From Microbacterium paraoxydans (GTDB taxonomy: Bacteria > Actinomycetota > Actinomycetes > Actinomycetales > Microbacteriaceae), in the NCBI RefSeq assembly GCF_019056515.1, contig NZ_CP064873.1, positions 992,001 through 1,056,000 on the forward strand: a stretch of 64,000 nt of DNA, in the 5' to 3' direction. A model generated the notes under the pieces. That model did no database searches and was not told where the DNA came from. It worked only from the letters and a program-made list of their open reading frames with translations. Below, one piece after another: positions 8,089 through 52,169 of the stretch; within the stretch, counting starts at the first letter, position 1, and each line of letters opens with the position of its first letter. The position numbers and the translations under genes are program-made.

Positions 8089-8098
8089 CTCCGGCGTG

Positions 8099-34462: not shown

Positions 34463-35442
34463 CCCTCGAGGCGCAGCACGCGGCGCAGCCAGCTCTCCCG
34501 CGCGGCCACTGCGGCCCGGGAGACCTCGGCATCGGGGGAGAACCCGGAGAAGCCGTGGTAGCCGCCCGCCCAGACGTGCAGTTCGGCCTGCCCGCCCGTG
34601 GCCCAGATCCGCGACGCGTAGTCGACGGCCTCGTCGCGGAAGGTCTCCGCGGCGCCCACCTCGATGAACGCCGGGGCGAGTCCCGATAGATCCGTGGCCC
34701 GGGCCGGTGCCGTGTACGGCGACACGCGGTCGGTGAACCGGTCGGCTCCGGCGATCGCGTCCCACGCGGTGTCGTTGTTGTTCCGGTCCCAGGCGCCGAA
34801 GCCGTCGTACTGGCGGCTCGACGGGGTCTCGTTGCGGTCGTCGAGCATCGGGCAGCCGAGGAGTTGCCCGGCCAGCCGGGGCCCGCCGCGGACACGGGAG
34901 AGCAGCGCGACCGCCGCCGAGAGCCCGCCCCCGGCGCTCTGCCCGGAGGCGATGATGCGGGAGGTGTCGATGCCGAGCTCGTCGGCTTGGGCGACCATCC
35001 ACTCCAGCGCCGCGTAGCAGTCCTCCGCCTGTGCCGGTCCGGGGTGCTCGGGGGCGAGGCGGTACTCGACCGCGACCCCGACGACGCCGTGCCGCTCGGC
35101 GAGGTCGATGAGCTCGGCGGTGCCGAAGAAGCGCGTGCCGAGCACCATGCCGCCGCCGTGGATCGACAGCACCGCCGGTGCCGGGTCCGTGGGCGCCGGC
35201 GCCGGGCGCACGACCGTGATCTCGAGGTCCGGAGCCCCGACGGGGCCGGGAATGACCCGGTCCTCCCAGGTCACGGCGCGACCGTCCGCCTGCACGGCCA
35301 TCGGCGGGATGATCGTGGCGAAGTGGTCGCGGTTGGCGTGGATCGTGTCCGCGCGCAGCGGGATGACCTCCACGAGGTCGACGAAGGCGTCGAGTCCGGC
35401 GACGAGCTCCGGGTCGTAGGGCACCGGCTCCGGCGTGCTCAT
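34459..35442 (-). CDS. HSL-family alpha/beta hydrolase (esterase), copy 2
   Basis: 327 residues. The oxyanion-hole HGGG, nucleophile in GQSAGGG and catalytic His in GGYHGF identify the hormone-sensitive-lipase (family IV) carboxylesterases; the acid residue is probably in the ETFRDE region. It hydrolyses short to medium esters in the cytoplasm. About half the residues appear shared with the adjacent upstream esterase, from which it is coupled by an ATGA overlap, suggesting a local duplication. Substrate unknown. Confidence 0.88.
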   Translation of the reverse strand: MSTPEPVPYDPELVAGLDAFVDLVEVIPLRADTIHANRDHFATIIPPMAVQADGRAVTWEDRVIPGPVGAPDLEITVVRPAPAPTDPAPAVLSIHGGGMVLGTRFFGTAELIDLAERHGVVGVAVEYRLAPEHPGPAQAEDCYAALEWMVAQADELGIDTSRIIASGQSAGGGLSAAVALLSRVRGGPRLAGQLLGCPMLDDRNETPSSRQYDGFGAWDRNNNDTAWDAIAGADRFTDRVSPYTAPARATDLSGLAPAFIEVGAAETFRDEAVDYASRIWATGGQAELHVWAGGYHGFSGFSPDAEVSRAAVAARESWLRRVLRLEG

Positions 35443-36410: not shown

Positions 36411-36433
36411 GGTTCTCCTCGGGTGGGACGGCG

Positions 36434-37393: not shown

Positions 37394-37401
37394 GATGCTC
37401 C

Positions 37402-38502: not shown

Positions 38503-38524
38503 GGTTCTCCAGTCGCGGGGCGGG

Positions 38525-38582
38525 TGGCGGGATCGAAGACGGTCCTCCGCGGTGCCCGGGAGGGGCGGAATCGATCCCGCAC
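38525..38582. repeat. Solo 58-bp palindromic element
   Basis: Starts TGGCGGGATCGAAG and ends CGATCCCGCAC, exactly 58 bp, matching the array units in length and termini. It fills most of the gap between the SDR and alcohol dehydrogenase genes. Confidence 0.75.
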
Positions 38583-38597
38583 GGAGGGGGTCGGGGG

Positions 38598-39332
38598 TCA
38601 GACGAGGAGCTGGCCGCCGTCGACGGGGACCGAGACCCCGGTGATGTGGCTGGCGGCCTCGCTCGCGAGGAACAGCACGAGCGGGGTGACCTGGTCGACC
38701 TCGGCGATGGTGCCGAGCGGGATGCGCGACTCCCACGCGGCGCGGGCGTCCGGGTTCGAGGCGAATCCGGCGGTCAGGGGCGTGAGCACGGGGCCGGGGG
38801 CGACGGCGTTGACCCGCACCCCGGAGCCGGCGAGCTCGATGGCCGCCGTCCGGGTGAGCGCGTCGACCGCGGCCTTCGTGGCCTCGTAGTGCCCGAGGCC
38901 GGGAGTGGGCTGCCGGGCGCCGATCGAGGAGATGTTGACGATGGCCCCGTGGCCGGCCGTGGCGAGCAGCCCGCCGAAGACCCGCAGCATGAGGAACGTG
39001 CCGCGGACGTTGACCCGCAGGGCCGCATCGACCGCGTCGACCGCGACCTCCTGGAGCGTTCCCCCGCCGGCGACGACGCCGGCGTTGTTGACGAGGACGT
39101 CGAGACCGCCGGACTCGCGGATCCGTCCGGCCGCCGCCTGCACCGACGCTTCGTCGCCGATGTCGAGGGGGAGGGCGGTGGCGCCGATCTCGGCGGCGAC
39201 GGCTGCCGCGGCGCCCTCGTCCACGTCACCGATGAACACCTCGTCGCCTGCAGCGCGGAAGGCGGTGGCGATGCCGCGGCCGAGCCCGGAGGCTCCTCCG
39301 GTGACGAGGATACGGCGCGGGGAAGCGGTCAT
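38598..39332 (-). CDS. Short-chain dehydrogenase/reductase
   Basis: 244 residues. TGGASGLG (cofactor), NNAG, the catalytic Ser in NISS and YEATK are all intact; the C-terminus ITGVSVPVDGG is typical. GTGAGGACGACC precedes the ATG at 39332. It is the promoter-proximal gene of the minus-strand operon that continues through ADH, AKR, two esterases and the MFS exporter, starting from the palindromic site at 39378-39393. Confidence 0.9.
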   Translation of the reverse strand: MTASPRRILVTGGASGLGRGIATAFRAAGDEVFIGDVDEGAAAAVAAEIGATALPLDIGDEASVQAAAGRIRESGGLDVLVNNAGVVAGGGTLQEVAVDAVDAALRVNVRGTFLMLRVFGGLLATAGHGAIVNISSIGARQPTPGLGHYEATKAAVDALTRTAAIELAGSGVRVNAVAPGPVLTPLTAGFASNPDARAAWESRIPLGTIAEVDQVTPLVLFLASEAASHITGVSVPVDGGQLLV

Positions 39333-39377
39333 GGTCGTCCTCACTGACGGGTGTTCTGATGGGATTCCTCCGTTATA

Positions 39378-39393
39378 TTCTACAAACATAGAA
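39378..39393. promoter_or_regulatory. Regulon operator site 1 (TTCTAC-AAAC-ATAGAA)
   Basis: A 16-bp near-perfect palindrome between the divergent SDR operon and the + strand aldo/keto reductase. On the minus strand TAGAAT within it can serve as a -10 box. It matches three more sites at 41428, 48107 and 50565. Confidence 0.65.
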
Positions 39394-39432
39394 AAATACA
39401 ACCCCGTGCCCCGAGACGGCGAAGGAGCCCTC

Positions 39433-40395
39433 ATGCCTGATGCGACATACCCCCGCAAGCCGCTGTCTCCGGGAGGCGCGACGGTGCCGCCGCTCGCCCT
39501 CGGATCGTGGAACACCTGGGATCGCATGGAGTTCGACGACGCCGTGCAGCTCATCCACCGGGCGGTCGAGCTCGACGCCGGATTCTTCGACATCGCGTAC
39601 TACAACATGGGACCGCACGCCGAGAACTCACGGACCGACATCCTCTTCGGGGAGGCCTTTCGCGCGAGCGGGGTGGACCGTGCCGACGTCGTGCTGTGCG
39701 GCAAGCTCTGGCTCTGGGACTGGCCGAACCAGGGCTTCCGTGGGCAGATCGAGGAGTCGCTCGAGCGGGCCGGCCTCGACCGCTTCGACACCCTCGTGGT
39801 GGGGGACTACCTCGACGCCCCGGACATGCCGCGACTCGTCGCCGACGTGAACGCCCTCCTCGTGGACGGCCTGGTCGACTCGTGGGGGATCAACAACTGG
39901 CGGATCGCGGACACCAGGGCGGCGCTCGCCGAGGCGGACGCGCAGGGGCTGATCGGCCCCGCGTTCGCGCAGCTCAAGTACGGCATCGCCCGACGGGCCA
40001 TGGCGGAGGGTGACGCGTACGGCCCGCTGTTCGCCGACGGAACCCTCGCGCTGCAGGCCTCGGACGTGTTCGAGGGCGGAATCCTCGCCACGGGACGGAT
40101 GCCTCAGCGCAAGATCGGTGCCGATGTCGGGGGTATCCGCGAGCGGATCCTCGCCGTGTACCCCGAGGTCGCGCGGGTCGCGGGGGAGTTCGGGGTGACC
40201 CCGGCCGCCCTCGGCATCGCCTTCTGTCTGGCGAACCCCGCGACGGCCACCGTGCTCTTCGGTGCCTCCCGCGTCGCGCAGCTCGAGGAGAACCACGCCG
40301 CCCTCGCCCTCGCCCGCGACCACGGAGCCGAGGTCCGCGCCGCCCTCGCCGACTGCCGCGTCGACCACGCCGTCCGGCCCGACGGCACCTGGTGA
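39433..40395 (+). CDS. Aldo/keto reductase-like protein lacking the catalytic His
   Basis: 320 residues, homologous to the protein at 36.4 kb. Asp and Tyr lie in FFDIAYY and Lys in CGKLWLW; the tetrad His position reads LVVGDYL (Gly). LKYGIARRAMAEGD and ASDVFEGGILATG blocks are shared by the pair. GAAGGAG precedes the ATG. It is divergent from the SDR-ADH-esterase operon across a shared operator, so both AKRs should be co-expressed and may form a hetero-oligomer. Confidence 0.85.
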   Translation: MPDATYPRKPLSPGGATVPPLALGSWNTWDRMEFDDAVQLIHRAVELDAGFFDIAYYNMGPHAENSRTDILFGEAFRASGVDRADVVLCGKLWLWDWPNQGFRGQIEESLERAGLDRFDTLVVGDYLDAPDMPRLVADVNALLVDGLVDSWGINNWRIADTRAALAEADAQGLIGPAFAQLKYGIARRAMAEGDAYGPLFADGTLALQASDVFEGGILATGRMPQRKIGADVGGIRERILAVYPEVARVAGEFGVTPAALGIAFCLANPATATVLFGASRVAQLEENHAALALARDHGAEVRAALADCRVDHAVRPDGTW

Positions 40396-40443
40396 CCTTT
40401 CGCGCCTGCCGCCGCTCCCGCCGCTCCCGCCGCTCCCGCCGGT

Positions 40444-41274
40444 GTCCGGGATCACTTCCGCACCTCCCGCGCGCCCCGCAGGCACGTTCCTGATCCCGCA
40501 CTCGCTCGCCCTCGCGTCCCACTCCGCGTGCGGGATCACTTCCGCACCTCCCGCGCGCCCCGCAGGCACCTTTCCGATCCCGCACGGTGTGACCTACTGC
40601 GTCCCGGTGGGAAAACGTGCCTCGAGGAGAGAGAGTGCGCCGGGAGGCGACCCTGGTGCCCCGCCCTGTGCCCCTGAGGACCGCTTCGCCCGCGGGATCA
40701 GTTCCGCCCCTCGCGCGCGCTCTGCGGGCACGTTTGTGATCCCGTCTTGCTCCGCCTCCACCCCACCCCGCTGCGGGATCCATTCCGTGCCTCTCCGACG
40801 GCCCGCTGGCACGTTTCTGATCCCGCACGGCGTGAGGCTCCGCGCGCCGGTTCGAGAACGCGCCGCGTGGGGAGGATGTGTGGTCGATTCTGATCCCGCT
40901 TCTGGTGGCGGCTGTGGGTCCGTCGCCGAGTCTGCTGTTCCTGCACAACCGAACCGCTCTCCGGCACCCCGGATCAGAAACGCTCCTCGCCTCCGTGCTG
41001 AATCAGAAGTGCTCCTCGCCTCCGCGGCGGATCAGAAGTGCTCCTCGGATCGGGGTGGGAGGTGCGTTCTTGATCCCGGGAGGGTGGGTGTGGTCTCTCT
41101 CGGAAGCGGCAGCGGAGACCATTCCCGCCGTCACTTGCTCCGGTGCGGGGTGAAAAGGGTGCCTTGAAGGCGCCGCGGAGGGGTGTTTCTGATCCGGCCG
41201 GAGGGGTGCGCGCAGTGGCGGGATCAAGAACGGGCCCCTCGGGGAGGGGGCGGGTGCGGTATTGATCCCGGCAC
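40444..41274. repeat. Array 2 of eight 58-bp palindromic elements
   Basis: Units, each 58 bp: 40444-40501, 40528-40585, 40690-40747, 40771-40828, 40844-40901 (degenerate), 41024-41081, 41143-41200, 41217-41274. The better units open GTGCGGGATCA and close TGATCCCGCAC. Centre-to-centre steps of 73-74 and 81-85 bp recur, as in array 1. The region 40396-41540 (1.1 kb) contains no gene I can support; it holds this array, a 9-bp CCGCTCCCG run at 40411-40440, a 29-bp tandem repeat and an ACCGGC satellite. Confidence 0.85.
40971..41039. repeat. 29-bp tandem repeat, half of the 58-bp unit
   Basis: ATCAGAA recurs at 40973, 41002 and 41031 (exact 29-bp period) followed by GCTCCTCGCCTCCG. The last copy is also the left half of the 58-bp unit 41024-41081, so the block looks like iterated half-elements. 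Confidence 0.7.
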
Positions 41275-41336
41275 CGGCACCGGCACCGGTACCCGCACCG
41301 GCACCGGTACCCGCACCGGCACCGGCACAGGCACCC
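41271..41336. repeat. GCACCG/ACCGGC simple-sequence satellite
   Basis: About 66 bp of 6-bp GCACCG repeats with an 18-bp higher-order unit containing GGTACCC (twice). It directly follows the last 58-bp unit of array 2. Confidence 0.85.
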
Positions 41337-41427
41337 GGGGGGCGGGGGTGTGCGCGGGGGAGCAAGGTGCGTGCGCGCTGAGGCATCGGTCCGTGCGGCC
41401 GGGGTCGGAAACACGCTTGCGCTCTTT

Positions 41428-41443
41428 TTCCACGCATGTAGAC
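41428..41443. promoter_or_regulatory. Regulon operator site 2 (TTCCAC-GCAT-GTAGAC)
   Basis: A 16-bp imperfect palindrome 97 bp upstream of the peptide-binding-protein gene; the -10-like TAGACT (41439-41444) overlaps it. Confidence 0.65.
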
Positions 41444-41540
41444 TAACCAGCACGACACATCGAAGTGGCGTCGGTCCCGGTCCCCGGTCAGCGGCTCTTC
41501 GAACCTTCTTCACCACCCCCTGCACCCGAGAGAAGGAACC

Positions 41541-43070
41541 ATGAAACGAATGCCCCTCGCGGTCGCCGCCGCCGTCGCCGCGACCCTCGCGCTCGCCGGC
41601 TGCAGCGGCGGCGGAACGCCCTCGCCGTCCGACGGCGGTGGCGCCGAAGGCCCCGACGCCCTCAACATCGGCAACTTCCTCGATGTCACGTCGTGGGATC
41701 CGTCCCTCGCCGACATCGGCTTCGACGGCCCCTACCTGTCCGCGGTGTACGACGCCCTGATCGCCCTCGACGCCGACGGCACCCCGATCCCGTCGCTCGC
41801 GACGAAGTGGACCGTGGCCGACGACGACCTCAGCATCGACCTCGACATCCGCACCGACGCCGTGTTCAGCGACGGCACCCCGGTCGACGCCGACGCCGTC
41901 GTCGCGAGCCTCGAGTACCTCAAGGCCGGCGCCCGGTCCGGTGAGGCCTACGTCAACGCGAAGGGCTTCGAGAAGGTCGACGACGACACCGTCCGCATCG
42001 CCCTCACGCAGCGCGACGACACGATCCTCTACCTGATGGGCCTCGGCCGCAGCTACGTCATGCTCCCGGCCTCCATCGAGGCCGGCACGCTCGGCAGCGA
42101 TCCGGTCGGCTCCGGCCCCTATGTGCTCGACAGCGACACCAGCGTCGCGGGCGCCGAGTACCACTTCACCAAGACCGAGGACCACTGGGACGCGGAGACG
42201 TACCCGTTCGCCGAGCTCGCGATCTACCCGATCACCGATGCGACCGCCCGTCACAACGCGATGCTCAGCGGCCAGATCAACGTGCAGTACGGCGACGTGG
42301 CCAACCTCGACCAGGCCGAGCAGCAGGGCTGGAACACCGCCCAGCGCGTCTCCGGGTGGGCGGGCCTCGTCATCACCGACCACACCGGCGCGAAGAGCGA
42401 GCCCCTCGGCAAGCTCGAGGTGCGCCAGGCGCTGAACTACGCGTTCGACGGTGCGGCCGTCCTCGCGGCGGTCGGCAGCGGTGCGGGCGTGGCCACCAAC
42501 CAGGTGTTCCCCGACGGCGGCGACATCAACGACCCCGAGCTCAACGACGCCTACGCGTTCAACATGGACAAGGCGAAGGAGCTTCTGGCCGACGCCGGCT
42601 ACCCGGACGGCTTCGACATCTCGATGCCGATGTCCCCGATCTTCGAGATGTGGAAGCCGTCGGCCGAGCAGGCCCTCAACGAGCTCGGCATCACCGTCAC
42701 CTGGGACAACATGCAGATGCCGGACTACCAGCTCAACGCACCGAACTACCCGATGTTCATCTCCTTCCTCGCGATGGACGGCAACGACGTGGCCACCGTC
42801 TCCCGGCAGCTGACGAGCGTGCAGTGGTTCAACCCGGAGCCCGACTACGCGAAGAACGAGGTCATCGCCCCGCTCGTCGAGAAGGTGCAGACGGAGCGCG
42901 GCGACGCGCAGACCGCCGCCATCAAGGAGCTCAACGAGGCCCTCGTCGACCAGGCCTGGTGGTCGGTCTGGTACCAGGCGAACAACATCTACTACACGGC
43001 GCCCGGCATCCAGCTGCAGCCCGTCGTGGGGATGATGTTCCCGACGCTGCGGTACATCACGCAGGGCTGA
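41541..43070 (+). CDS. Peptide/opine-type ABC substrate-binding lipoprotein (SBP family 5)
   Basis: 509 residues. A signal peptide ends in lipobox LALAGC (lipidated Cys about 21), followed by a Gly/Ser/Pro linker. The SBP_bac_5 domain fills the rest with the typical GSGPYVLDS segment near residue 192. It captures ligand outside the membrane for the DppBC-DF importer downstream. GAGAAGGAACC precedes the ATG. Family ligands include di/oligopeptides, opines and other amides; the ligand here is not evident. Confidence 0.92.
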   Translation: MKRMPLAVAAAVAATLALAGCSGGGTPSPSDGGGAEGPDALNIGNFLDVTSWDPSLADIGFDGPYLSAVYDALIALDADGTPIPSLATKWTVADDDLSIDLDIRTDAVFSDGTPVDADAVVASLEYLKAGARSGEAYVNAKGFEKVDDDTVRIALTQRDDTILYLMGLGRSYVMLPASIEAGTLGSDPVGSGPYVLDSDTSVAGAEYHFTKTEDHWDAETYPFAELAIYPITDATARHNAMLSGQINVQYGDVANLDQAEQQGWNTAQRVSGWAGLVITDHTGAKSEPLGKLEVRQALNYAFDGAAVLAAVGSGAGVATNQVFPDGGDINDPELNDAYAFNMDKAKELLADAGYPDGFDISMPMSPIFEMWKPSAEQALNELGITVTWDNMQMPDYQLNAPNYPMFISFLAMDGNDVATVSRQLTSVQWFNPEPDYAKNEVIAPLVEKVQTERGDAQTAAIKELNEALVDQAWWSVWYQANNIYYTAPGIQLQPVVGMMFPTLRYITQG

Positions 43071-43143
43071 ACGCCCGCCGGGGCGGTCGCGACGCGGCCG
43101 CCCCGGCACCCCTTCCCCTCCTCCTCACCCTCGAGAGGCCCCC

Positions 43144-44085
43144 ATGCTCCTCTTCACGGCGAAGCGGGTGCTGTCCGGCATCCTCCTGCTCGTCGCGGTC
43201 TCGATCGGCACGTTCTTCCTCGCCCACCTCGCGATCAGCGATCCGACCGCCTCGCTCCTCGGGACCACGGCGAGTCCTGCGCAGCAGGAGGCGCTGGCGG
43301 CGAAGATCGGTCTCGACCGCCCCCTGATCGTGCAGTTCTGGGACTGGTTCTCCCACGCCGTGCTGCTCGACTTCGGCGTCTCGTGGCGCAACTTCCAGCC
43401 GGTCGGCGCGCAGCTCGCGGTCAAGGTCCCCGTCACGCTCTCCGTCGTGACCCTCGCGACCCTCATCACCGCGGTCATCGGCGTCGCCTTCGGCATGATC
43501 ACCGGACTCCGCCCCGGCACCTGGTTCGACCGGATCATCAAGGGGATCTCCGTCGTCCTCTTCGCGCTCCCCGGGTTCTGGGTGAGCCTGGTCCTGGTGA
43601 TGTGGCTGGCCGTGCAGCTCCAGTGGTTCCCCGCCGTCGGCTACGTCCCGCCGACCCAGTCCGTCGAAGGGTGGCTGCGCTCGATCACGCTCCCGGCGAT
43701 CTCCCTCGCCCTGGGCGGCATCGTCGCCGTGTCCGAGCAGCTGCGGAACGCCGTGATCGCGCAGAGCCGCCAGGACTGGGTGCGCACCCTGCGCAGCCGC
43801 GGCCTGTCCGCCGCGCGGGTGAACCTGCACATCCTCCGCAACGCCTCGCCCGCCGCGCTCACGGTGATCGCCCTGATGTTCGTGGGCCTGCTCTCCGGCG
43901 CCATCGTGGTGGAGCAGATCTTCAGCCTCCCCGGTCTGGGGCAGCTCACGAACCAGTCGTCGCAGAACGGCGACATCCCCATGCTGCTCGGGATCACGGT
44001 GGTCTCCATCGTCTTCGTCGTCCTCATCAACCTCCTGCTCGACCTCGTGCTCGGCTGGATCAACCCGAAGGTGCGCGTCGCATGA
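43144..44085 (+). CDS. Peptide-type ABC importer permease (DppB-like)
   Basis: 313 residues with six membrane helices; the N-terminal domain FTAKRVLSGILLLVAVSIGTF and the inner-membrane signature around RNAVIAQSRQDWVRTLRSRG (EAA loop) define DppB/OppB. It ends overlapping the next gene as ATGA. It forms the channel with the permease half of the fused protein. Confidence 0.92.
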   Translation: MLLFTAKRVLSGILLLVAVSIGTFFLAHLAISDPTASLLGTTASPAQQEALAAKIGLDRPLIVQFWDWFSHAVLLDFGVSWRNFQPVGAQLAVKVPVTLSVVTLATLITAVIGVAFGMITGLRPGTWFDRIIKGISVVLFALPGFWVSLVLVMWLAVQLQWFPAVGYVPPTQSVEGWLRSITLPAISLALGGIVAVSEQLRNAVIAQSRQDWVRTLRSRGLSAARVNLHILRNASPAALTVIALMFVGLLSGAIVVEQIFSLPGLGQLTNQSSQNGDIPMLLGITVVSIVFVVLINLLLDLVLGWINPKVRVA

Positions 44086-45878
44086 CCACGACAGACATCC
44101 GCGTCGCCTTCGACCGGGCCGCCCAGAAGCGCCGGTCGAGCCTGTTCCGACGCTTCCTCCGCCACCCCGGCGGCTCCATCCCGCTCGCCATCTTCGTACT
44201 CATCGTGCTCGTCGGGGTGTTCGCGCCACTGCTGGCGCCGATGGACCCGAACCTCGTCGACCTCGCAGCCGCGAAGGCCCCGCCCTCCCCGGAGCACCTC
44301 CTCGGCGGCGACTCCACCGGCCGCGACATCCTCAGCCGCCTCATCTACGGGACGAGGACGACGCTGTGGGGTGCGCTCATCACGATCGTCACGGCGCTCG
44401 TCATCGGGGTTCCGTCGGGTGTCGCAGCCGGGTACTTCGGCGGTGTCTTCGACCGGGTCGCGACCTGGATCAGCGACGCCCTCCAATCGATCCCCGGGAT
44501 GATCATCCTCCTCGTGGTCGCCGCCGGCAGCCGCAACAACTTCGAGCTGCTGATGGTCACCGTCGGCGTCTTCATGGTCCCGGGGTACTTCCGCATCGCG
44601 CGGTCGCAGACGCTCGCCGTCCGCGGCGAGGCGTACATCGACGCCGCCCGTGTGTCGGGCCTGTCGGACGCGCGCATCATCTTCCGCCACGTCATCACAG
44701 CCGTCTATCCGCCGGTCATCATCCAGACCGCGCTCACGGCGGGTATCGCCATGGGCATGCAGGCGGGGCTCCAGTTCCTCGGCATCGGCGACTCGAACGT
44801 GCCGAGCTGGGGCGCGATGATGCTCGAGGGCTTCCGGCTCATGCTCACCTACCCGCTCATGCTGCTGTGGCCCTCCGCTGCGCTCGGTCTCACGATCGCC
44901 GTCCTCGCGATCATGGGCTCCACGCTCGCCGAGCTCGTGCAGGTGCGCACGCCGCGCGCGGCCCGACGGCGGCGGCGCGGAGTGCTCGAGACCGCGGACG
45001 AGGTCGCCGCGGCTCCCGCCACGGGCAGTGTCCGCCACGAGGCTCCGGCATCGGCCCTCCGCGTCGAGAACCTGCACGTCGTCCACGCGACGCCGACGGG
45101 GGAGACCGAGGTCGTGCACGGCGTGACGCTCGACGTCGCGCCAGGGGAGGTCGTCGGGATCGTCGGCGAGTCCGGGTCGGGCAAGTCGCAGACCGTGTTC
45201 TCGGTGCTCGACCTGCTCCCCGCGACCGGCCGGGCGACCGCCGACGCGATCTGGGTCGGTGGAGCGGAGGTCACCCACGCGACGCCGAAGGAGCGCCAGG
45301 CCCTGCTCGGACGAACGATCGGCTACGTGCCGCAGGAGCCGATGAGCAATCTCGACCCCTCGTACACGATCGGGCATCAGCTCATCGAGCCGCTGCGCCG
45401 CACGCACGGGCTCGCGAAGGCCGCCGCCCGGCAGCGCGCGCGGGAGGTGCTCCTGCGGGTCGGGCTGTCCGACCCCGATCGCGTGATGCGCAGCTATCCG
45501 CATCAGGTGTCCGGCGGCATGGCCCAGCGCGTGCTCATCGCCGGCGCGATCGCCGGTCGGCCGTCGCTTCTCGTGGCGGACGAGCCCACCACCGCCCTCG
45601 ACGTCACCGTGCAGGCCGAGGTCCTCGAACTGCTGCGGGAGCTGCAGGCCGAGTACGGCATGGCGCTGCTCATCGTGACGCACAACTTCGGCGTCGTCGC
45701 CGACATCTGCGACCGCGTGATCGTCATGCGCGGCGGCGACATCGTGGAGACGGGGCCTGTGGACGACCTCTTCGCCGCGCCCACCCAGGAGTACACGCGC
45801 GAGCTCATCGCCGCGTCGCTCGATGAAGCCGACGGTCGCGCCGCGCTCGACGGACGGCGGACGGAGGTCCCCGCGTGA
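44082..45878 (+). CDS. Fused peptide-type ABC permease-ATPase (DppC-DppD)
   Basis: 598 residues in one frame. Residues about 20-300 are a DppC-like permease (EAA loop ARVSGLSDARIIFRHVI). A basic linker around 305-320 leads to a DppD-like ATPase: Walker A GESGSGKS (about 366), Q-loop GYVPQEP, signature QVSGGMAQRV and Walker B LLVADEPTTALD. It is coupled to dppB (ATGA) and dppF (GTGA). A permease-ATPase fusion is also found in the LIV-type system of this window. No frameshift or internal stop is seen, so it is likely functional. Confidence 0.9.
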   Translation: MTTTDIRVAFDRAAQKRRSSLFRRFLRHPGGSIPLAIFVLIVLVGVFAPLLAPMDPNLVDLAAAKAPPSPEHLLGGDSTGRDILSRLIYGTRTTLWGALITIVTALVIGVPSGVAAGYFGGVFDRVATWISDALQSIPGMIILLVVAAGSRNNFELLMVTVGVFMVPGYFRIARSQTLAVRGEAYIDAARVSGLSDARIIFRHVITAVYPPVIIQTALTAGIAMGMQAGLQFLGIGDSNVPSWGAMMLEGFRLMLTYPLMLLWPSAALGLTIAVLAIMGSTLAELVQVRTPRAARRRRRGVLETADEVAAAPATGSVRHEAPASALRVENLHVVHATPTGETEVVHGVTLDVAPGEVVGIVGESGSGKSQTVFSVLDLLPATGRATADAIWVGGAEVTHATPKERQALLGRTIGYVPQEPMSNLDPSYTIGHQLIEPLRRTHGLAKAAARQRAREVLLRVGLSDPDRVMRSYPHQVSGGMAQRVLIAGAIAGRPSLLVADEPTTALDVTVQAEVLELLRELQAEYGMALLIVTHNFGVVADICDRVIVMRGGDIVETGPVDDLFAAPTQEYTRELIAASLDEADGRAALDGRRTEVPA

Positions 45879-46723
45879 ACACCGCTCCGGTGAACCCCCT
45901 GCTGCAGGTGGACGACCTCGTGGTCGAGTACGGCCGGGGTCGGCATGCCTTCCGCGCGCTGCACGGCGTCTCCCTCGACATCGCCCCCGGTGAGTGCCTG
46001 GGCCTGGTCGGCGAGTCCGGATCCGGGAAGTCGACGCTCGGCAAGGCCATCCTCGGCCTGGCCCCGGTGACGGCGGGCCGCATCCGCTTCGACGGCCGGG
46101 ACATCGGCCGGCTCGGCGGCCGGGCCCGACGGGCGCTCGCCGACGACGTGCAGGTCGTGTTCCAGGACCCGTACGGCTCCCTCAACCCGGCACTGACCAT
46201 CGGCGATATCCTCGCCGAGCCGCTGCTGACGACGGGGATCGGGGCGAAGGCCGCCGAGAAGCGCGTGCGCGACATGCTCGACCGCGTGCGGCTGCCCTCC
46301 GCGAGCATGGACCGGTACCCGAGCGAGTTCTCCGGCGGGCAGCGGCAGCGCATCGCGATCGCCCGCGCCCTCGTCCGCGGTCCGCGGCTGATCGTGTGCG
46401 ACGAGCCGGTCAGTGCGCTCGATCTCACCACGCAGGCCACCATCCTCGACCTCTTCATCGAACTGCAGCGCGACACCGGCGTGGCCTACCTGTTCGTCTC
46501 GCACGACCTCGGCGTCGTCCGTCGGGTCTGTCACCGGGTCGCCGTGATGTACCGGGGCGAGATCGTCGAGATCGGAGACGGGGAGCAGGTCACGCGCGCG
46601 CCACGTCACCCGTACGCCGAGCGCCTGCGGCTGGCCTCGCCCGTCGCGGACCCGGTGGCTCAGCGGGAACGCCGGGCGCAATGGCTCGCTCTGCGGGAGG
46701 TGCCCGATGCGGCGGTACGGTAG
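45875..46723 (+). CDS. Peptide-type ABC importer ATPase (DppF-like)
   Basis: 282 residues from a GTG overlapping the preceding stop. Walker A is GESGSGKST, the signature EFSGGQRQRIAIARAL, Walker B LIVCDEPVSALD. The C-terminal peptide-importer extension (RHPYAERL) is present. It pairs with the fused DppC-DppD ATPase half. The TetR gene follows after 47 bp and is probably co-transcribed. Confidence 0.92.
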   Translation: MNTAPVNPLLQVDDLVVEYGRGRHAFRALHGVSLDIAPGECLGLVGESGSGKSTLGKAILGLAPVTAGRIRFDGRDIGRLGGRARRALADDVQVVFQDPYGSLNPALTIGDILAEPLLTTGIGAKAAEKRVRDMLDRVRLPSASMDRYPSEFSGGQRQRIAIARALVRGPRLIVCDEPVSALDLTTQATILDLFIELQRDTGVAYLFVSHDLGVVRRVCHRVAVMYRGEIVEIGDGEQVTRAPRHPYAERLRLASPVADPVAQRERRAQWLALREVPDAAVR

Positions 46724-46770
46724 CTCCAGGCCGGAACACGCCACACCCCGGACTCGGCCGGAAGGACGCC

Positions 46771-47358
46771 ATGCCGAAGATCATCGACCACGACCAGCGG
46801 CGACGGGACATCGTCGAGGTGGCCAAGAGCATCATCCTGAAGGGTGGGTTCGAGGCGGCGACCATGCGCAGCATCGCCGCGGAGGCGGGCTTCGCGAACG
46901 GTGCGCTGAAGCACTACTTCCCCGGGAAGGAGAGCATCGTCGCGGCGACGTTCGAGACGATCCTGCAGCAGATGTCCGAGGGCGTGGAGGCCGCGGGGCA
47001 GGAGCCGGTGGCGGCGGACGACGCCCTGCGGGGCTTCCTGCAGGCCACCGTGCCGCGCGACCCGGAGCAGATCGCCGCGGGCCGGGTGCTCCTGGCGCTC
47101 TGGGAGTACGCGATGGCGAACGAGTCCCTGGCCGAGCTCTACCGCGGACACCTGGGCTCCTGGCGAGCCTCGCTCATCGCGCGCATGGAGGCGGCCCGCG
47201 ACGAGGGGTCGATCCGCGATCAGGACTACGGCCCGCTGGCGGACGAGTACATCTCCGCGGCGGTCGGGGCGACGGTCATCAACCTCATGTACCCGGACGG
47301 CGAGCGCATCGCCGACTACGAGAACTACATCGACCGGTTCCTCGCGCGGCTGCGCTGA
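46771..47358 (+). CDS. TetR family regulator (candidate regulon regulator)
   Basis: 195 residues. The HTH region (about 10-55) includes IAAEAGFANGALKHYFPGKES; the C-terminal domain is helical, BetI-like. Its N-terminus PKIIDHDQRR resembles the TetR at 31.9 kb. GGAAGGACG precedes the ATG. It lies downstream of the importer and upstream of the hydrolase, methyltransferase and amidohydrolase, all but the hydrolase having TTCYAC-N4-RTAGAM sites at their own promoters or at the operon head. It is the most obvious candidate to bind those sites, which is inference. Confidence 0.88.
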   Translation: MPKIIDHDQRRRDIVEVAKSIILKGGFEAATMRSIAAEAGFANGALKHYFPGKESIVAATFETILQQMSEGVEAAGQEPVAADDALRGFLQATVPRDPEQIAAGRVLLALWEYAMANESLAELYRGHLGSWRASLIARMEAARDEGSIRDQDYGPLADEYISAAVGATVINLMYPDGERIADYENYIDRFLARLR

Positions 47359-47392
47359 GGGTGAGGGGCCGGTCCCGAGAGGACGGTCCGTC

Positions 47393-48067
47393 ATGACCCT
47401 TCCCCCCGAACGACCCGTGGTGTTCCTGCACGGCCTCGCCTCGCGCGGCACGCAGGACTGGCCGGACAGCGAGTGGACGGCGGTGCTCGGCGACCGGCCG
47501 CGCCGGGTCCTCGACCTGCCGGCGCACGGCGACGCCCCCGGGCTCGGCGTCGTGCCGACCTCCGCGGTGCTCGACGCGCTCGCCGACGCGATCGGCCCGG
47601 ACGAGGTCGACCTCGTCGGCTACTCGCTCGGTGCCCGGCTCGCGTGGGACCTCGCGCGGCACCCGGGTGTCACGGTGCGGCGCCTCGTGCTCGGCGGCCT
47701 CAGCGCGGGGGAGCCCTTCGCGCTCGTCGACCTCTCCGCCGCGCGGGCCGCGCTCGCCGGCGGACCGGCTCCCGTCGACCCGCTGACCGGGATGATCGTG
47801 CACATGGTGAGCCTGCCCGGCAACCGCCCGGACGATCTGCTCGACCTCATCGAGGGGCTCGCGACCGAGCCGTTCGCGCCCGAAGCCGGAGCGCCGGCGG
47901 TGCCGGTGCTGCTCCTGGGCGGCGAGGACGATCCGATGGCCGCGGGCATCGACGAGCTCGCCGCGCGGCTGCCGGACGTCCGGGTGCGGCGCGTCCCCGG
48001 CGATCACCTCGTGGCGTTGCACACCGCCGCGTTCCGCGACGCCGTGCGCGGGTTCCTCGCGGACTGA
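47393..48067 (+). CDS. Alpha/beta hydrolase
   Basis: 224 residues. The HG motif VVFLHGLASRG, the nucleophile in GYSLGA (Ser about 82), and the His in GDHLVAL near the C-terminus form a normal triad with an Asp in GGEDDP. It is short, lacking a large cap domain, like RsbQ/YdeN or thioesterase-like enzymes. It starts 34 bp after the TetR stop, likely on the same transcript as the importer. Substrate unknown. Confidence 0.85.
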   Translation: MTLPPERPVVFLHGLASRGTQDWPDSEWTAVLGDRPRRVLDLPAHGDAPGLGVVPTSAVLDALADAIGPDEVDLVGYSLGARLAWDLARHPGVTVRRLVLGGLSAGEPFALVDLSAARAALAGGPAPVDPLTGMIVHMVSLPGNRPDDLLDLIEGLATEPFAPEAGAPAVPVLLLGGEDDPMAAGIDELAARLPDVRVRRVPGDHLVALHTAAFRDAVRGFLAD

Positions 48068-48106
48068 CCTCCGCGACCGCCGCCCGGCCTCTTCCTGCCC
48101 TTTATT

Positions 48107-48122
48107 TCCCACGTTCGTAGAC
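48107..48122. promoter_or_regulatory. Regulon operator site 3 (TCCCAC-GTTC-GTAGAC)
   Basis: A 16-bp match to the regulon palindrome 19 bp upstream of the methyltransferase-like gene; the -10-like TAGACA overlaps it. Confidence 0.6.
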
Positions 48123-48141
48123 ATACCGAAAGGCATCCGCC

Positions 48142-49131
48142 ATGACCGACACCCCCACTCCCGATGCCGCCCGCATCCTCGACATCGCCACCGGCTACAT
48201 GGCCGCGAAGCAGCTCTTCCAGGCCAGCCGCATCGGCCTGTTCGCCGCCGTCGCCGCCGGCGCCGACACGGCCGCGGCGATCGCCGAGCGCTGCGGGGTG
48301 AGCGAGCGGATCGCCCGGCTGCTCGCCGACGCCCTCGCCGCGAAGGGTCTCCTCGTCCGGACGGAGGGGCGCTACGCCCTGGCTCCCGACGCGTCCGCCT
48401 ACCTCACGGGGGACGACGCGGTCATCGACCTCGCTCCGTTCCTCACGTTCCTCGACGAGATCAGCTACCCGCACTGGCTGCAGTTCGCGCACACGGTCGA
48501 CACGACCGAGCCCGGCGACCTGCAGATGGACGACGCCCGGTGGGGCACGTTCATGGCCGGCGTCATGACGTACAACCGCCTGCACGCGCAGGAGTTCGGC
48601 CGGCTCGTCGACCTCGCCGGCGCGACGAAGGCCCTCGACTTCGGTGGCCTGTCCGCCGAGTTCGCCCTCGCCGTCATGGCGCGCAACCCCGAGCTGCACA
48701 CGACGTTCGTCTACGCCCCGGGGTTCGAGGACGGCGTGGCCGAGGCGGTCGCGGCCGCGGGCGTCGCCGACCGGGCTGCCGTCGAGGTGGGGGACACGGC
48801 GACCGCGGCCCCCGAGGGCGCCTACGACGCGGTGTTCGCCAACCACGTCATCCACCGCTTCTCCGCGGAGGAGAACGCGCAGATCTTCCGCCGGCTCCGT
48901 GCCGCAGCGCTCGACGGGGCGACGCTCACCGTGCTCGACTTCTTCCTCGACGACGACGACGAGCAGCGCGCGCTGGACGCCCTGCACGCGGGGGAGTACC
49001 TCGTGATCGACGGCACCGTCGTGTACCCCGAGTCGCAGGTCCGCGGCTGGCTGACGGACGCGGGATGGGCGGTGCGCGACACCGTCGCCCTGCCGGGGAG
49101 CCCGCGCGTGCTCCTGGCCACCGCGGTCTGA
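48142..49131 (+). CDS. O-methyltransferase-like protein with degenerate SAM motif
   Basis: 329 residues. An N-terminal winged dimerisation domain (about 10-90, IAERCGVSERIARLLADALAAKGL) is followed by a Rossmann methyltransferase fold as in the plant-type O-methyltransferase/ASMT family. The SAM loop, usually DxGGGxG, reads DFGGLSAEF, losing the second glycine pair, and no clear catalytic His-Glu pair is seen. It could be a weak methyltransferase or a non-catalytic binder. GAAAGGCATCC precedes the ATG. A regulon operator lies just upstream. Confidence 0.78.
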   Translation: MTDTPTPDAARILDIATGYMAAKQLFQASRIGLFAAVAAGADTAAAIAERCGVSERIARLLADALAAKGLLVRTEGRYALAPDASAYLTGDDAVIDLAPFLTFLDEISYPHWLQFAHTVDTTEPGDLQMDDARWGTFMAGVMTYNRLHAQEFGRLVDLAGATKALDFGGLSAEFALAVMARNPELHTTFVYAPGFEDGVAEAVAAAGVADRAAVEVGDTATAAPEGAYDAVFANHVIHRFSAEENAQIFRRLRAAALDGATLTVLDFFLDDDDEQRALDALHAGEYLVIDGTVVYPESQVRGWLTDAGWAVRDTVALPGSPRVLLATAV

Positions 49132-49167
49132 CGACCGCGGTTCGAGACTGGTCCGAGGGGGATCAGA

Positions 49168-49204
49168 GGCGGGCGGCATGCGTGAACATGCCGCCCGCCG
49201 TTTT
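49168..49204. terminator. Strong bidirectional hairpin terminator
   Basis: Perfect 13-bp arms GGCGGGCGGCATG (49168-49180) and CATGCCGCCCGCC (49187-49199) with a 6-nt loop, followed by GTTTTC, between convergent genes. Confidence 0.85.
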
Positions 49205-49218
49205 CGTGGGGCGGGTGG

Positions 49219-50562
49219 TCAGCCGCGCGCGAACACCGTGCGGCCGTCGACGATCGTGCGCTCGACCTGGAGGGCGGCGAACGGGCGCCCCGGGCTGCAC
49301 GGATCCTCGTCGAGCACCGTGATGTCGGCGACCTTGCCGGGCTCGAGGGTGCCCTTCCAGCTCGCGGCGCCGTCCTGGATCGCGGCGTCGGCCGTCATGG
49401 TGCGCAGCAGCCGGCGCCGCGTCGCGGCGTCGTCCGCGCGGCCGTCGGCGGCGAGGAGGGCGAGGGACGCATCGAGGCTCGGGCGCCAGTCCGGCGTGGC
49501 GATCGGGGCGTCGCTGGTCACGGTGGTCAGCGCCCCGGAGGAGAGCATCTCGGCCAGCGGCCACGCGGCGGCGACGCGGGCCTCGCCGAGCTGCACCGCC
49601 GCCCAGGAGTGCGTGTGCGCGGCGATGAGGGGCTGCACGGCGAAGCCGACGCCGAGGCGTTCCGCGCGCCGGATCTGCGCGGGGGTCGCGAGGTCGCCGT
49701 GCACGATGTGGTGGGGCGCCGGCGGCGGGGGAGTCTGGCCGTGCCGTTCCAGTGCGGTGAGGAACTCCTCGATCGAGCGGTCGCCGGTGGCGTGCACCGC
49801 GATCTGGAGGCCGCGACTCGCAGCCAGCGCGATCATCTGCTGGAAGGCGCTGAGCGGATCGGCGTCGCCGCGCGTGAGCAGGTGCCCGGTCGTCCCGTCG
49901 GGGTAGGGGTCGGACGTCCACGCGGTGGCCATCGGCGGGATGCCGTCGGCGAAGATCTTCACGCCGGGGATCGCGAGCCAGCGGGAATCGGTCGACGGGG
50001 GCGGCACCGGGAGTCCGGCGGCGAAGTCGTCCAGGGAGCTCTCGCCGTCGATCGTCCCGAACAGGCGGAGCAGTGTCACGCGCGAGGTCTGCGCGGCCTC
50101 TTGGTGCAGCTCCACGTACGCGTCGAGCATGTCGGTGCCGAAGCAGCCGGTCTCACCGTGGTCCTCTCCGGGGCCGATGCCCGGCTCCGTGTAGCTCGTG
50201 ACGCCGAGCTCCGCGAGCAGTGCCCAGGCCCGGCGCAGGGCCGCACGTCGCTCATCGGCCGTGGCCACGAGGCGGCCGGTGGGCTGCTCCTCGGGCGGGG
50301 TGTCGGAGAAGAACAGGTGCGGCCAGCGCGCGCCCAGCCAGGCGGCGTGGAGGTGGGCGTCGTTGAGGCCGGGGATCGCGGTGCGACCGTCGAGCTGCAC
50401 CACTTCGCGGGCCGAGAGGGCTTCGGCAGCGGCGTCGGTGGCGACGATCACCCCGTCCCGGACGGCGATCGCGGTGGCGACGGAATCGGTGGCGTCGACG
50501 GTGTGGATGCGGCCGCCGCGGAGAAGGAGGTCGGCGTCGTCGCCGAGGAGTGCGCTGCTCAT
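49219..50562 (-). CDS. YtcJ-like amidohydrolase (family 3)
   Basis: 447 residues. HxH in NDAHLHAAW (about residue 70) provides metal ligands; VKIFADGIPP, HATGDRSIEEF and PGKVADITVLDEDP are typical of YtcJ-like enzymes, and a second homologue lies at 8.9 kb. It is shorter than that protein by about 100 residues. The ATG is two bases from operator site 4, and TACACT inside the operator can act as -10 for a leaderless transcript, so repression would be direct. It probably opens an amide or cyclic C-N bond in the substrate handled by this regulon. Confidence 0.87.
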   Translation of the reverse strand: MSSALLGDDADLLLRGGRIHTVDATDSVATAIAVRDGVIVATDAAAEALSAREVVQLDGRTAIPGLNDAHLHAAWLGARWPHLFFSDTPPEEQPTGRLVATADERRAALRRAWALLAELGVTSYTEPGIGPGEDHGETGCFGTDMLDAYVELHQEAAQTSRVTLLRLFGTIDGESSLDDFAAGLPVPPPSTDSRWLAIPGVKIFADGIPPMATAWTSDPYPDGTTGHLLTRGDADPLSAFQQMIALAASRGLQIAVHATGDRSIEEFLTALERHGQTPPPPAPHHIVHGDLATPAQIRRAERLGVGFAVQPLIAAHTHSWAAVQLGEARVAAAWPLAEMLSSGALTTVTSDAPIATPDWRPSLDASLALLAADGRADDAATRRRLLRTMTADAAIQDGAASWKGTLEPGKVADITVLDEDPCSPGRPFAALQVERTIVDGRTVFARG

Positions 50563-50564
50563 TA

Positions 50565-50580
50565 TTCCACCAGTGTAGAC
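50565..50580. promoter_or_regulatory. Regulon operator site 4 (TTCCAC-CAGT-GTAGAC)
   Basis: A 16-bp imperfect palindrome immediately upstream of the amidohydrolase start, overlapping its likely -10 box. The 164-bp region up to the divergent gap gene has no other clear motif. Confidence 0.65.
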
Positions 50581-50726
50581 GTAAAACTCTCGTGCCAGGG
50601 AGGTCCCGCCCCGGCCGATTCGGCGCGCGGTTCCGCGGCTTGTACCCTGGAGTCATCCCCCGAACACCCCGGCAACCTCGTGCGCGCCGGCGACCTCGGC
50701 GCGCGCTCACACATGCAAGGACGCAG

Positions 50727-52169
50727 ATGAACGATTCCGCGGCACATCGCGACGAATGGACGGCGAGCGAAGAGCTGGCGGAGCGGATGATCCCGCTCAT
50801 CGGGGCTCTCAAGCGCGAGCGCGACGTGGTCACCTCGTTGCACGGCCACCGCCTGCTCGGCCTCTCGGCGACCGGCCTCGTCGAGGTGCACGAGCGCGTG
50901 GCCCAGCTCGGGCACGAGCGTCTCGAGGTCGAGGACAGCCTGGCCGTGCTCGAGGGCATCCACGCCCTGGCCCCCGGCGCCTCGTCGATCGACGTGGCCC
51001 GCCTCGTGGAAGGGTACGCGGAGAGCGGCCGCCCGCTCGAGGAGTATCTCGCCGAGACCCTGGCCCCGGCCGTCGGCGCGGTCCCGGCATCGCCGACCGA
51101 CGTCGTTCTCTACGGCTTCGGGCGCATCGGCCGCCTGCTGGCCCGCATCCTCATCGCTCACACCGGCGGCGGGAGCGGACTCCGGCTCCGCGCCATCGTC
51201 GTGCGCCGCGGCTCCGAGAACGACCTCGTCAAGCGCGCGTCGCTGCTGCTGCGCGACTCGGTGCACGGCCGCTTCGCGGGCTCGGTCACGGTGGACGAGG
51301 ACGCCGAGCAGATCATCGCCAACGGCACGCGCATCCAGGTCATCTACTCCGACGACCCGGCCGCCGTCGACTACACCGCCTACGGCATCGACGACGCGAT
51401 CGTCGTCGACAACACCGGCCGCTGGCGTGACGAGGCGGGGCTCTCCCAGCACCTCCGCGCGAAGGGCGTCGCCCGCGTGCTGCTGACCGCCCCCGGCAAG
51501 GGCCCGCTGAAGAACATCGTGCAGGGCATCAACGACGACACGATCACCGACGAGGACCGCATCGTCTCGGCGGCGTCGTGCACGACCAACGCCATCACCC
51601 CGGTGCTCGCCGCGATCGACGAGGCCTACGGCGTCGTGAAGGGCCACGTCGAGACCGTGCACTCGTTCACGAACGACCAGAACCTCATCGACAACTTCCA
51701 CAAGGGCGACCGCCGCGGCCGCTCCGCCGTGCTGAACATGGTCATCACCGAGACCGGGGCTGCGAAGGCCGTGGCCAAGGCCCTCCCGCAATTGGAGGGC
51801 AAGCTCACGGGCAGCGCGATCCGCGTCCCCACGCCGGACGTCTCGCTCGCGGTGCTGCACCTCACGCTGGAGAGCCCCGCCACCAAGGACCAGGTCAACG
51901 ACTACCTGCGCCGCGTGTCGCTGCACTCGAAGCTCCGGCAGCAGATCGACTACGTGGAGAGCCCCGAGGTCGTCTCCACGGACTTCGTCGGCTCGCACCG
52001 CGCGGGCATCGTCGACGGCCTGGCCACGATCGCCGACGAGGACACCCTCATCCTCTACGTCTGGTACGACAACGAGTTCGGCTACTCCTGCCAGGTGATC
52101 CGGGTGCTGGAGACCATGGCGGGTTCGCACCCCGTCGTCCTCCCCGCCCGCCGCGAAGTCACCCTCTGA
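50727..52169 (+). CDS. gapB: Long-form glyceraldehyde-3-phosphate dehydrogenase (GapB type)
   Basis: 480 residues, against about 335 for classical GAPDH. Residues about 1-125 are a helical N-terminal extension; the NAD motif YGFGRIGRLLARIL follows near 130 and the catalytic Cys 285 sits in SAASCTTN. The length and extension match GapB of Corynebacterium glutamicum, associated with gluconeogenesis. Proximity to pckG and a RamB-like regulator fits growth on acids or amino acids. The start at ATG 50727 (MNDSAAHRDEW) is preferred over a longer reading that overlaps the amidohydrolase promoter. Confidence 0.9.
   Translation: MNDSAAHRDEWTASEELAERMIPLIGALKRERDVVTSLHGHRLLGLSATGLVEVHERVAQLGHERLEVEDSLAVLEGIHALAPGASSIDVARLVEGYAESGRPLEEYLAETLAPAVGAVPASPTDVVLYGFGRIGRLLARILIAHTGGGSGLRLRAIVVRRGSENDLVKRASLLLRDSVHGRFAGSVTVDEDAEQIIANGTRIQVIYSDDPAAVDYTAYGIDDAIVVDNTGRWRDEAGLSQHLRAKGVARVLLTAPGKGPLKNIVQGINDDTITDEDRIVSAASCTTNAITPVLAAIDEAYGVVKGHVETVHSFTNDQNLIDNFHKGDRRGRSAVLNMVITETGAAKAVAKALPQLEGKLTGSAIRVPTPDVSLAVLHLTLESPATKDQVNDYLRRVSLHSKLRQQIDYVESPEVVSTDFVGSHRAGIVDGLATIADEDTLILYVWYDNEFGYSCQVIRVLETMAGSHPVVLPARREVTL

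What the first reader, a model, noticed from the sequence alone, without database searches (positions are those of the whole stretch)
39378..50580. Four-site regulon: TTCYAC-N4-RTAGAM at promoters across 11 kb
Sixteen-base palindromes occur at 39378 (TTCTAC/ATAGAA), 41428 (TTCCAC/GTAGAC), 48107 (TCCCAC/GTAGAC) and 50565 (TTCCAC/GTAGAC). Each overlaps a likely -10 box and lies before a distinct unit: SDR-ADH-AKR-esterases-MFS operon and divergent AKR, importer-TetR-hydrolase, methyltransferase-like protein, amidohydrolase. They tie about 14 genes into one probable catabolic system controlled by the TetR at 46.8 kb. I know of no described pathway with this gene set.
Basis: partly seen in the sequence, partly recalled or inferred. 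Interest (0 to 1): 0.8.

Follow-up and report, generated by a model that had tools for sequence, protein, structure and literature searches.

The report
Conserved TetR-controlled catabolic gene regulon
Four copies of one 16-base DNA switch sit in front of a 15-gene uptake-and-breakdown cluster in a Microbacterium, and the same switch, the same repressor and much the same gene set recur together in distant bacteria, which points to a shared but still unidentified breakdown pathway.

Summary
All four 16-bp sites are where stated. In the 3.59-Mb genome the only three exact matches to TTCYAC-N4-RTAGAM are here. The sites recur at the matching promoters in 13 related Microbacterium loci while spacer and flanks drift.

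A 63-100% identical TetR occurs in 14 of 119 genus genomes. By my count those 14 hold 40 exact sites, 39 in the cluster; the other 105 hold 14 scattered ones. In 52 TetR-selected loci from other genera, Alphaproteobacteria included, a matrix trained on Microbacterium sites finds 158 sites, 156 just upstream of homologs of these genes; only a 4-base gap gives this. Among loci found through the methyltransferase-like gene, 8 of 8 at 55% identity or more carry TetR and sites; a 48% paralog carries neither.

Best explanation: an autoregulated TetR-type repressor controls a catabolic regulon. Binding, repression, ligand and substrate are inferred. My paper searches found no description of it. The methyltransferase-like member has an altered SAM motif I. 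It is a new member of a known kind.

The parts
39378..39393 (.). operator site 1, TTCTAC-AAAC-ATAGAA, between divergent SDR operon (-) and AKR2 (+)
   Evidence: found in 14 of 14 genus loci, window included, at up to 2 mismatches (for G066 on a second contig)
41428..41443 (.). operator site 2, TTCCAC-GCAT-GTAGAC, before the importer-TetR-hydrolase operon
   Evidence: exact in 14 of 14 genus loci, window included
48107..48122 (.). operator site 3, TCCCAC-GTTC-GTAGAC, before the methyltransferase-like gene
   Evidence: found in 12 of 14 genus loci, five of them at 2 mismatches and one (L045) only by matrix at 13.5 bits; absent in L037 and L038
50565..50580 (.). operator site 4, TTCCAC-CAGT-GTAGAC, before the amidohydrolase
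   Evidence: found in 14 of 14 genus loci, exact in 13 and one mismatch in L048
33245..34462 (-). MFS transporter, Bcr/CflA family
   Evidence: NCBIfam TIGR00710 268.8 bits, cut-off 200.9
34465..35442 (-). HSL-type esterase 1
   Evidence: Pfam Abhydrolase_3 175.6 bits
35439..36410 (-). HSL-type esterase 2
   Evidence: Pfam Abhydrolase_3 180.6 bits; heroin esterase 1lzk among PDB relatives, 189 bits
36434..37393 (-). aldo-keto reductase 1
   Evidence: Pfam Aldo_ket_red 97.6 bits
37402..38502 (-). zinc-type alcohol dehydrogenase
   Evidence: Pfam ADH_zinc_N and ADH_N
38598..39332 (-). short-chain dehydrogenase, first gene of the left operon
   Evidence: Pfam adh_short_C2 199.4 bits
39433..40395 (+). 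aldo-keto reductase 2
   Evidence: Pfam Aldo_ket_red 84.6 bits; best PDB relative AKR6D1, 83 bits
41541..43070 (+). solute-binding protein of an Opp/Dpp-type importer
   Evidence: Pfam SBP_bac_5 185 bits; PDB relatives are heme-, dipeptide- and nickel-binding proteins
43144..44085 (+). importer permease 1
   Evidence: Pfam BPD_transp_1 120.9 bits
44082..45878 (+). importer permease 2 fused to an ATPase domain
   Evidence: Pfam OppC_N, BPD_transp_1 and ABC_tran in one ORF
45875..46723 (+). importer ATPase 2
   Evidence: Pfam ABC_tran 116.5 bits
46771..47358 (+). TetR-type regulator, the proposed repressor
   Evidence: Pfam TetR_N 43.8 bits and TetR_C_6 46.1 bits, both above cut-off
47393..48067 (+). 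alpha/beta hydrolase
   Evidence: Pfam Abhydrolase_6 43.9 bits
48142..49131 (+). O-methyltransferase-fold protein with altered SAM motif I
49168..49199 (.). terminator-like hairpin between the converging methyltransferase-like and amidohydrolase genes
   Evidence: 2 such sites found in the region, shuffle mean 2.1, so not more than chance by number
49219..50562 (-). amidohydrolase, Amidohydro_3
   Evidence: Pfam 167.1 bits

Best explanation
The four palindromes, general form KTCYAC-N4-GTAGAM, are operators of the TetR encoded at 46771-47358. Without its ligand the TetR dimer binds them and blocks four promoter regions. These drive (1) the left operon SDR-ADH-AKR1-esterase-esterase-MFS and the divergent AKR2, (2) the importer operon that also carries the TetR and an alpha/beta hydrolase, giving negative autoregulation, (3) the methyltransferase-like gene and (4) the amidohydrolase. 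When the substrate or a breakdown product enters and binds the TetR, all units are released together, and the cell imports the compound through the Opp/Dpp-type ABC transporter and processes it with oxidoreductases and hydrolases. Shown: sites, their conservation, their link to this TetR and to homologs of this gene set across genera and two phyla. Inferred: direct binding, repression rather than activation, small-molecule induction, a catabolic role. Unknown: the substrate.
For: Exact sites confined to the cluster in the own genome and, by my count, 39 of 40 exact sites of the 14 TetR-bearing genus genomes in the cluster (one of them on a second contig, checked), against 14 stray sites in 105 others; Fisher p = 3e-11 for site presence, not corrected for kinship. 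Synteny of the unit in 13 relatives. Mean pairwise identity, half-sites/spacer/flanks: 0.91/0.81/0.55, 1.00/0.59/0.67, 0.84/0.46/0.40, 0.98/0.63/0.47 for sites 1-4, n = 13, 14, 11, 14. In 52 distant loci 158 matrix sites in 46 loci, against a mean of 5 for 200 column-permuted matrices (largest 71), and 0-16 at other half-site gaps. 156 of 158 lie within 350 bp upstream of a homolog of a window gene, a zone that covers 17% of positions. Sample not chosen by TetR: 8 of 8 methyltransferase-like loci at 55% identity or more have TetR and sites; the 48% paralog has neither. Recognition segment kept in 94 of 94 loci with sites.
Against: No binding or expression data. Six of 52 distant loci lack a site at 14.5 bits or more although their TetR has the same recognition segment (L087, L089, L101, L107, L110, L127); L089 and L110 are short fragments, and L101 and L110 reach 13.5 and 13.8. 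In Streptomyces the site before the binding-protein gene scores only about 9 and those before the amidohydrolase mostly 12.8. The methyltransferase-like promoter lacks a site in L037 and L038 of the genus. The stated -10 overlap did not pass a strict promoter scan. Some permuted matrices still find up to 71 sites. Kinship among genomes, and genomes sampled twice, inflate the counts.
Confidence: 0.87

Rival explanations
1. The gene set is a detoxification or resistance unit rather than a growth pathway: AKRs, SDR, esterases and a Bcr/CflA exporter modify and expel a toxic natural product, and the TetR senses that toxin.
For: The exporter passes the Bcr/CflA cut-off; esterase 2 resembles chloramphenicol hydrolase (148 bits, cut-off 500) and heroin esterase; TetR regulators often guard efflux (recalled).
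Against: A four-gene binding-protein-dependent importer and an amidohydrolase lie behind the same sites; importing a toxin is odd for detoxification. Within the 20-kb stretches of distant loci the importer is found more often than the MFS gene, and the MFS gene is missing from its place in L048.
Confidence: 0.2
2. The sites are operators of another regulator, for example the TetR that ends at 31356 beside the copper amine oxidase, whose relatives also neighbour the cluster in other genomes.
For: Relatives of that TetR (about 24-28% to the query) lie near the cluster in several genomes.
Against: That TetR reads GVATGSLWHYF; proteins with the same kind of segment occur in genomes G001, G075, G088 and G117, which hold no exact site. 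Loci fetched through the methyltransferase-like gene bring the 46.8-kb type of TetR together with the sites. Sites lie upstream of the 46.8-kb type of TetR gene 17 times.
Confidence: 0.04
3. The sites are conserved core promoter elements (TAGACT-like -10 boxes) or chance, with the palindrome a by-product.
For: The right half-site reads like a -10 in several promoters; one-mismatch matches occur at chance level genome-wide.
Against: Both half-sites are kept at a fixed 4-base gap; sites recur in pairs, most often 43-46, 54-55 or 74 bp apart; 156 of 158 lie before homologs of the same genes.
Confidence: 0.02

Closest known systems
BetI-type TetR repressors (choline-sensing BetI)
   Same: TetR_N plus TetR_C_6 domains; residues 1-125 match the BetI models
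   Different: Scores 60 bits, far below the BetI cut-offs of 118 and 201; no choline pathway gene recognised among the 15
QsdR and the qsd lactone-degradation operon of Rhodococcus (PMC6262395: abstract start in the listing, two passages)
   Same: Regulator beside a small catabolic operon in an actinobacterium, with palindromes proposed as operators
   Different: One qsdR-qsdA intergenic region rather than four promoter regions; its enzymes (lactonase QsdA, acyl-CoA ligase QsdC) differ from those of the window
Multi-operon TetR catabolic regulons such as KstR/KstR2 (recalled)
   Same: One TetR binds palindromes at many promoters of a catabolic gene set and is released by a pathway intermediate (recalled)
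   Different: The KstR model matches only residues 9-85 at 39 bits, cut-off 280
RHA06780 of Rhodococcus RHA1, PDB 2nx4
   Same: Closest solved structure by sequence, 118 bits over nearly the whole length
   Different: Regulon not stated in the one passage seen (PMC11667970)
Class-2 small-molecule O-methyltransferases (RedM, CalO1, PhzM)
   Different: Motif I reads [L/V]DxGGL[S/A] in 22 of 22 aligned, against DIGCAEG in RedM

Membership tests
TetR family regulator | N-terminal TetR_N helix-turn-helix above the curated cut-off | tested here: met
   43.8 bits against 24
TetR family regulator | palindromic operators at own and target promoters | tested here: met
   by sequence and conservation only
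TetR family regulator | direct binding released by a ligand | not testable with these tools
   needs EMSA and ligand screen
BetI equivalog | score above the BetI cut-off | tested here: not met
   60.4 against 118 and 60.2 against 201.3
TetR-controlled catabolic regulon | several separate promoters share the operator in one genome | tested here: met
   four sites, kept in relatives
TetR-controlled catabolic regulon | gene set breaks down a compound that supports growth or is removed | not testable with these tools
   no substrate known
Class-2 O-methyltransferase | Dimerisation plus Methyltransf_2 domains | tested here: met
   41.0 and 28.2 bits against 25.6 and 22.3
Class-2 O-methyltransferase | glycine-rich SAM-binding motif I (DxGxGxG-like; recalled) | tested here: not met
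   [L/V]DxGGL[S/A] in 22 of 22; the third glycine position is never glycine-compatible with the recalled pattern
Class-2 O-methyltransferase | acidic residue at the end of strand 2 that holds the SAM ribose (recalled) | tested here: inconclusive
   position 192 is A in 19 of 22, but D in two (P0088, P0096) and E in one (P0095); SAM binding itself not tested

The most novel reading that the evidence does not exclude
A cross-phylum, reshuffled catabolic pathway for an unrecognised natural product, kept together by one TetR and its operator, in which a methyltransferase-fold protein that has given up SAM chemistry carries out a central non-methylating step together with the alpha/beta hydrolase. 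The pairs SDR/AKR2 and ADH/AKR1 would oxidise and re-reduce (epimerise) hydroxyl groups before hydrolysis.
Probability: 0.26. Interest if true: 0.72.

Novelty: new member of a known kind. Interest (0 to 1): 0.52.

Why it matters
The operator gives a regulator-based handle on an unnamed pathway. The same matrix can list the pathway's genes in distant genomes, and a simple reporter with one operator can be used to screen for the inducer and thereby find the substrate. It also marks a conserved methyltransferase-like protein whose SAM motif is altered and which may no longer methylate.

Tried and rejected
Substrate: comparison with Pfam, NCBIfam and PDB sequences gave families but no pathway; extra genes beside the cluster in other taxa (phosphotriesterase-family, copper amine oxidase, GMC oxidoreductase, aldehyde dehydrogenase, SnoaL-like) did not settle it. 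Pathways weighed from memory and dropped because I recognised no marker gene of theirs among the 15: vitamin B6 degradation, benzoxazinoid degradation, steroid degradation; trichothecene epimerisation had only a distant AKR6D1 match.

Literature: searches found no description of this regulon or operator; the library holds open-licence PMC papers only. One search listed 20 of 155 papers and one search listed 10 of 303, the latter plain letter matches and unrelated as far as the listing shows; I read passages of two papers only.

A site-like match at 36413 (2 mismatches) before esterase 2 was dropped: it overlaps the ribosome-binding region and was seen again only in the closest relative, L036. 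No Rfam match at gathering threshold in 33000-51000. The strict promoter scan gave nothing.

Rows dropped before counts: L103 (second copy in one Streptomyces) and L104 (Microbacterium) from the distant set; L037 and L045 from single promoters, L037 and L038 where no site was found.
Full report
WHAT IS THERE. They precede units that together hold 15 genes between 33245 and 50562: on the left strand SDR, zinc ADH, AKR1, two HSL-type esterases and a Bcr/CflA MFS transporter, packed as one probable operon (the largest gap, SDR to ADH, is 95 bp); the divergent AKR2; then binding protein, two permeases (the second fused to an ATPase), a second ATPase, the TetR and an alpha/beta hydrolase; then a methyltransferase-like gene; and, converging on it, an amidohydrolase. 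A terminator-like hairpin lies between the last two.

IS IT MORE THAN CHANCE. In the own genome of 3.59 Mb, exact matches to the consensus number three, all here; allowing one mismatch adds site 48107 and one stray place. The pattern read backwards gives no exact match in this genome but 11 strand-hits at up to one mismatch, so a single one-mismatch hit means nothing by itself. The proof comes from comparison.

RELATIVES IN THE GENUS. The TetR has orthologs of 63-94% identity in 13 further genomes of the 119 searched, window genome included; the next best match listed is 41%. I fetched 20 kb around each of the 13 (L037 is cut short by a contig end, and its left part lies on another contig). 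The unit is syntenic as far as the stretches reach, with one exception seen: in L048 the MFS gene is not in its place. Sites stand at the same promoters, the window counted: SDR/AKR2 in 14 of 14, the binding protein in 14 of 14, the amidohydrolase in 14 of 14, the methyltransferase-like gene in 12 of 14 (11 in the table and L045 at 13.5 bits; L037 and L038 lack it). These counts allow up to 2 mismatches from the consensus; the weakest is the methyltransferase-like site of L048, 14.6 bits on a matrix it helped to build. In L037 that gene follows the hydrolase closely, so it may be read from the operon before it. Half-sites are better kept than spacer and flanks; the flank of the binding-protein promoter is itself well kept, so that promoter says less. 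L046 and L047 carry a second site, at one mismatch, 44 bp upstream of the binding-protein site.

CO-OCCURRENCE. Exact sites in the 119 genus genomes: counting each place once, I find 40 in the 14 TetR-bearing genomes, 39 of them in the cluster (stray: G040:C9:62899), and 14 in 13 of the 105 others. The backwards control gives 17 strand-hits in all 119. Fisher's test gives p = 3e-11 for presence; the genomes are related, so the figure is only a guide.

BEYOND THE GENUS. A genome-collection scan with the TetR kept 79 loci out of 108 relatives, among them Streptomyces, Saccharopolyspora, Amycolatopsis, Nonomuraea, Spongiactinospora, Leucobacter and, from Pseudomonadota, Devosia, Maritalea and Cucumibacter (lineage of Cucumibacter looked up, the other two recalled). 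Gene order differs widely but the same gene families recur. I built a symmetric matrix from 29 distinct Microbacterium sites, ignoring the spacer, and scanned the 52 loci from other genera (L082-L135 without L103 and L104). It finds 158 sites at 14.5 bits or more, in 46 loci; 200 matrices with permuted half-site columns average 5 (largest 71, presumably near-identical permutations); the same half-sites at gaps of 0-3 or 5-8 give 0-16. Of the 158, none lies inside a homolog of a window gene and 156 lie within 350 bp upstream of one: methyltransferase-like 70, AKR2 37, SDR 36, hydrolase 31, amidohydrolase 22, TetR 17, ADH 15, binding protein 4, AKR1 3, a site between two genes counting for both. 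The other two are one 15.1-bit sequence in L091 and L092. The upstream zone covers 17% of positions. Loci without a site: L087, L089, L101, L107, L110, L127. In the Streptomyces loci that hold SDR/AKR2 a site of 16.7 bits stands there; before the amidohydrolase L082 has 16.9 bits and L085, L088 and L091 have 12.8; the one before the binding protein has drifted to GCCGAC-N4-GTAGAC, about 9 bits.

A SAMPLE NOT CHOSEN BY TETR. Because those loci were chosen by TetR, I searched instead with the methyltransferase-like protein, at E up to 1e-60, in 296 genomes of the class, 22 of one family and 249 of the own family and fetched all 9 loci reported from other genera, from 8 genomes. The 8 loci at 55% identity or more all hold a TetR at 43-51% identity and at least one site at 14.5 bits or more; the ninth, a 48% paralog in the same genome as one of the eight, holds neither (best 13.4 bits, inside an esterase-like gene). 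One of the eight (L151) appears to be the same genome as L111, since contig lengths agree; overlap of the others was not checked.

WHO BINDS. In 94 of 94 loci with a site the best TetR match reads AG[F/Y]ANGALK[H/R/L]YF in its recognition segment, at 40-99% overall identity; the six loci without a site read the same, so the segment does not guarantee a site nearby (the 94 include genomes sampled twice). Some Leucobacter loci also hold a second, different TetR. Sixteen paralogs of 27-40% identity in other genus genomes read differently and their roughly 3.5-kb loci contain no site at 14.5 bits or more (best 13.9), though L021-L024 share a related TTCTAC/CTCTAC-N4-GTCGGA sequence just past the gene's end. 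The second TetR near the cluster is of another type (GVATGSLWHYF); proteins with its kind of segment occur in genomes with no exact site. Sites lie upstream of the TetR gene in loci where it is outside the importer operon, for instance Amycolatopsis. Pairs of sites, most often 43-46, 54-55 and 74 bp apart, are near whole numbers of helical turns, which suggests cooperative binding on one DNA face; this is inference.

HOW IT MOST LIKELY WORKS. Shown: sites, conservation, confinement of exact sites, linkage to this TetR. Inferred from the TetR family: repression by covering the promoter, release by a ligand, negative autoregulation through operator 2. The importer plus oxidoreductases and hydrolases suggest uptake and breakdown of a polar, probably esterified or oligomeric compound. 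I cannot name it.

COMPARED WITH WHAT IS KNOWN. It works like the known TetR-controlled catabolic regulons of actinobacteria and is not a BetI by the curated cut-offs. Searches turned up no paper on it. So: a well-supported and apparently undescribed regulon of a known kind, with an open substrate.

Noticed in passing
window 40424-40825: Four copies of a ~75-nt intergenic repeat between AKR2 and the binding-protein gene, with ends GCGGGATCA...TGATCCCGC; a 19-base pattern from it has 35 strand-hits (up to 2 mismatches) in the genome against 0 for the backwards control.
   Followed up: partly
window 29270-31252 (-) and 31356 to about 31960 (-): Copper amine oxidase and another TetR next to the cluster; palindrome-like stretches of another type (GAGC-N4-GCTC-like, by eye) lie before each. 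A copper amine oxidase also stands near the cluster in Leucobacter L118.
   Followed up: no
L021, L022, L023, L024: TetR paralogs (about 33% identity); three of the four read LGLANGSVTHYF in the table, and all four have a variant palindrome TTCTAC/CTCTAC-N4-GTCGGA just past the gene, perhaps a sister regulon.
   Followed up: no
L118:10652-12969 and neighbours: In Leucobacter two phosphotriesterase-family genes directly follow the methyltransferase-like gene on the same strand.
   Followed up: partly
L155:11693-13489 and 7459-8454: A reduced cluster (hydrolase, methyltransferase-like gene, TetR, sites) lies next to an acetolactate-synthase-like and a sulfatase-modifying-factor-like ORF; names by reading.
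   Followed up: no
L046:8151 and 8195; L047:7941 and 7985: Second operator-like site 44 bp upstream of the binding-protein operator in two genus members.
   Followed up: partly
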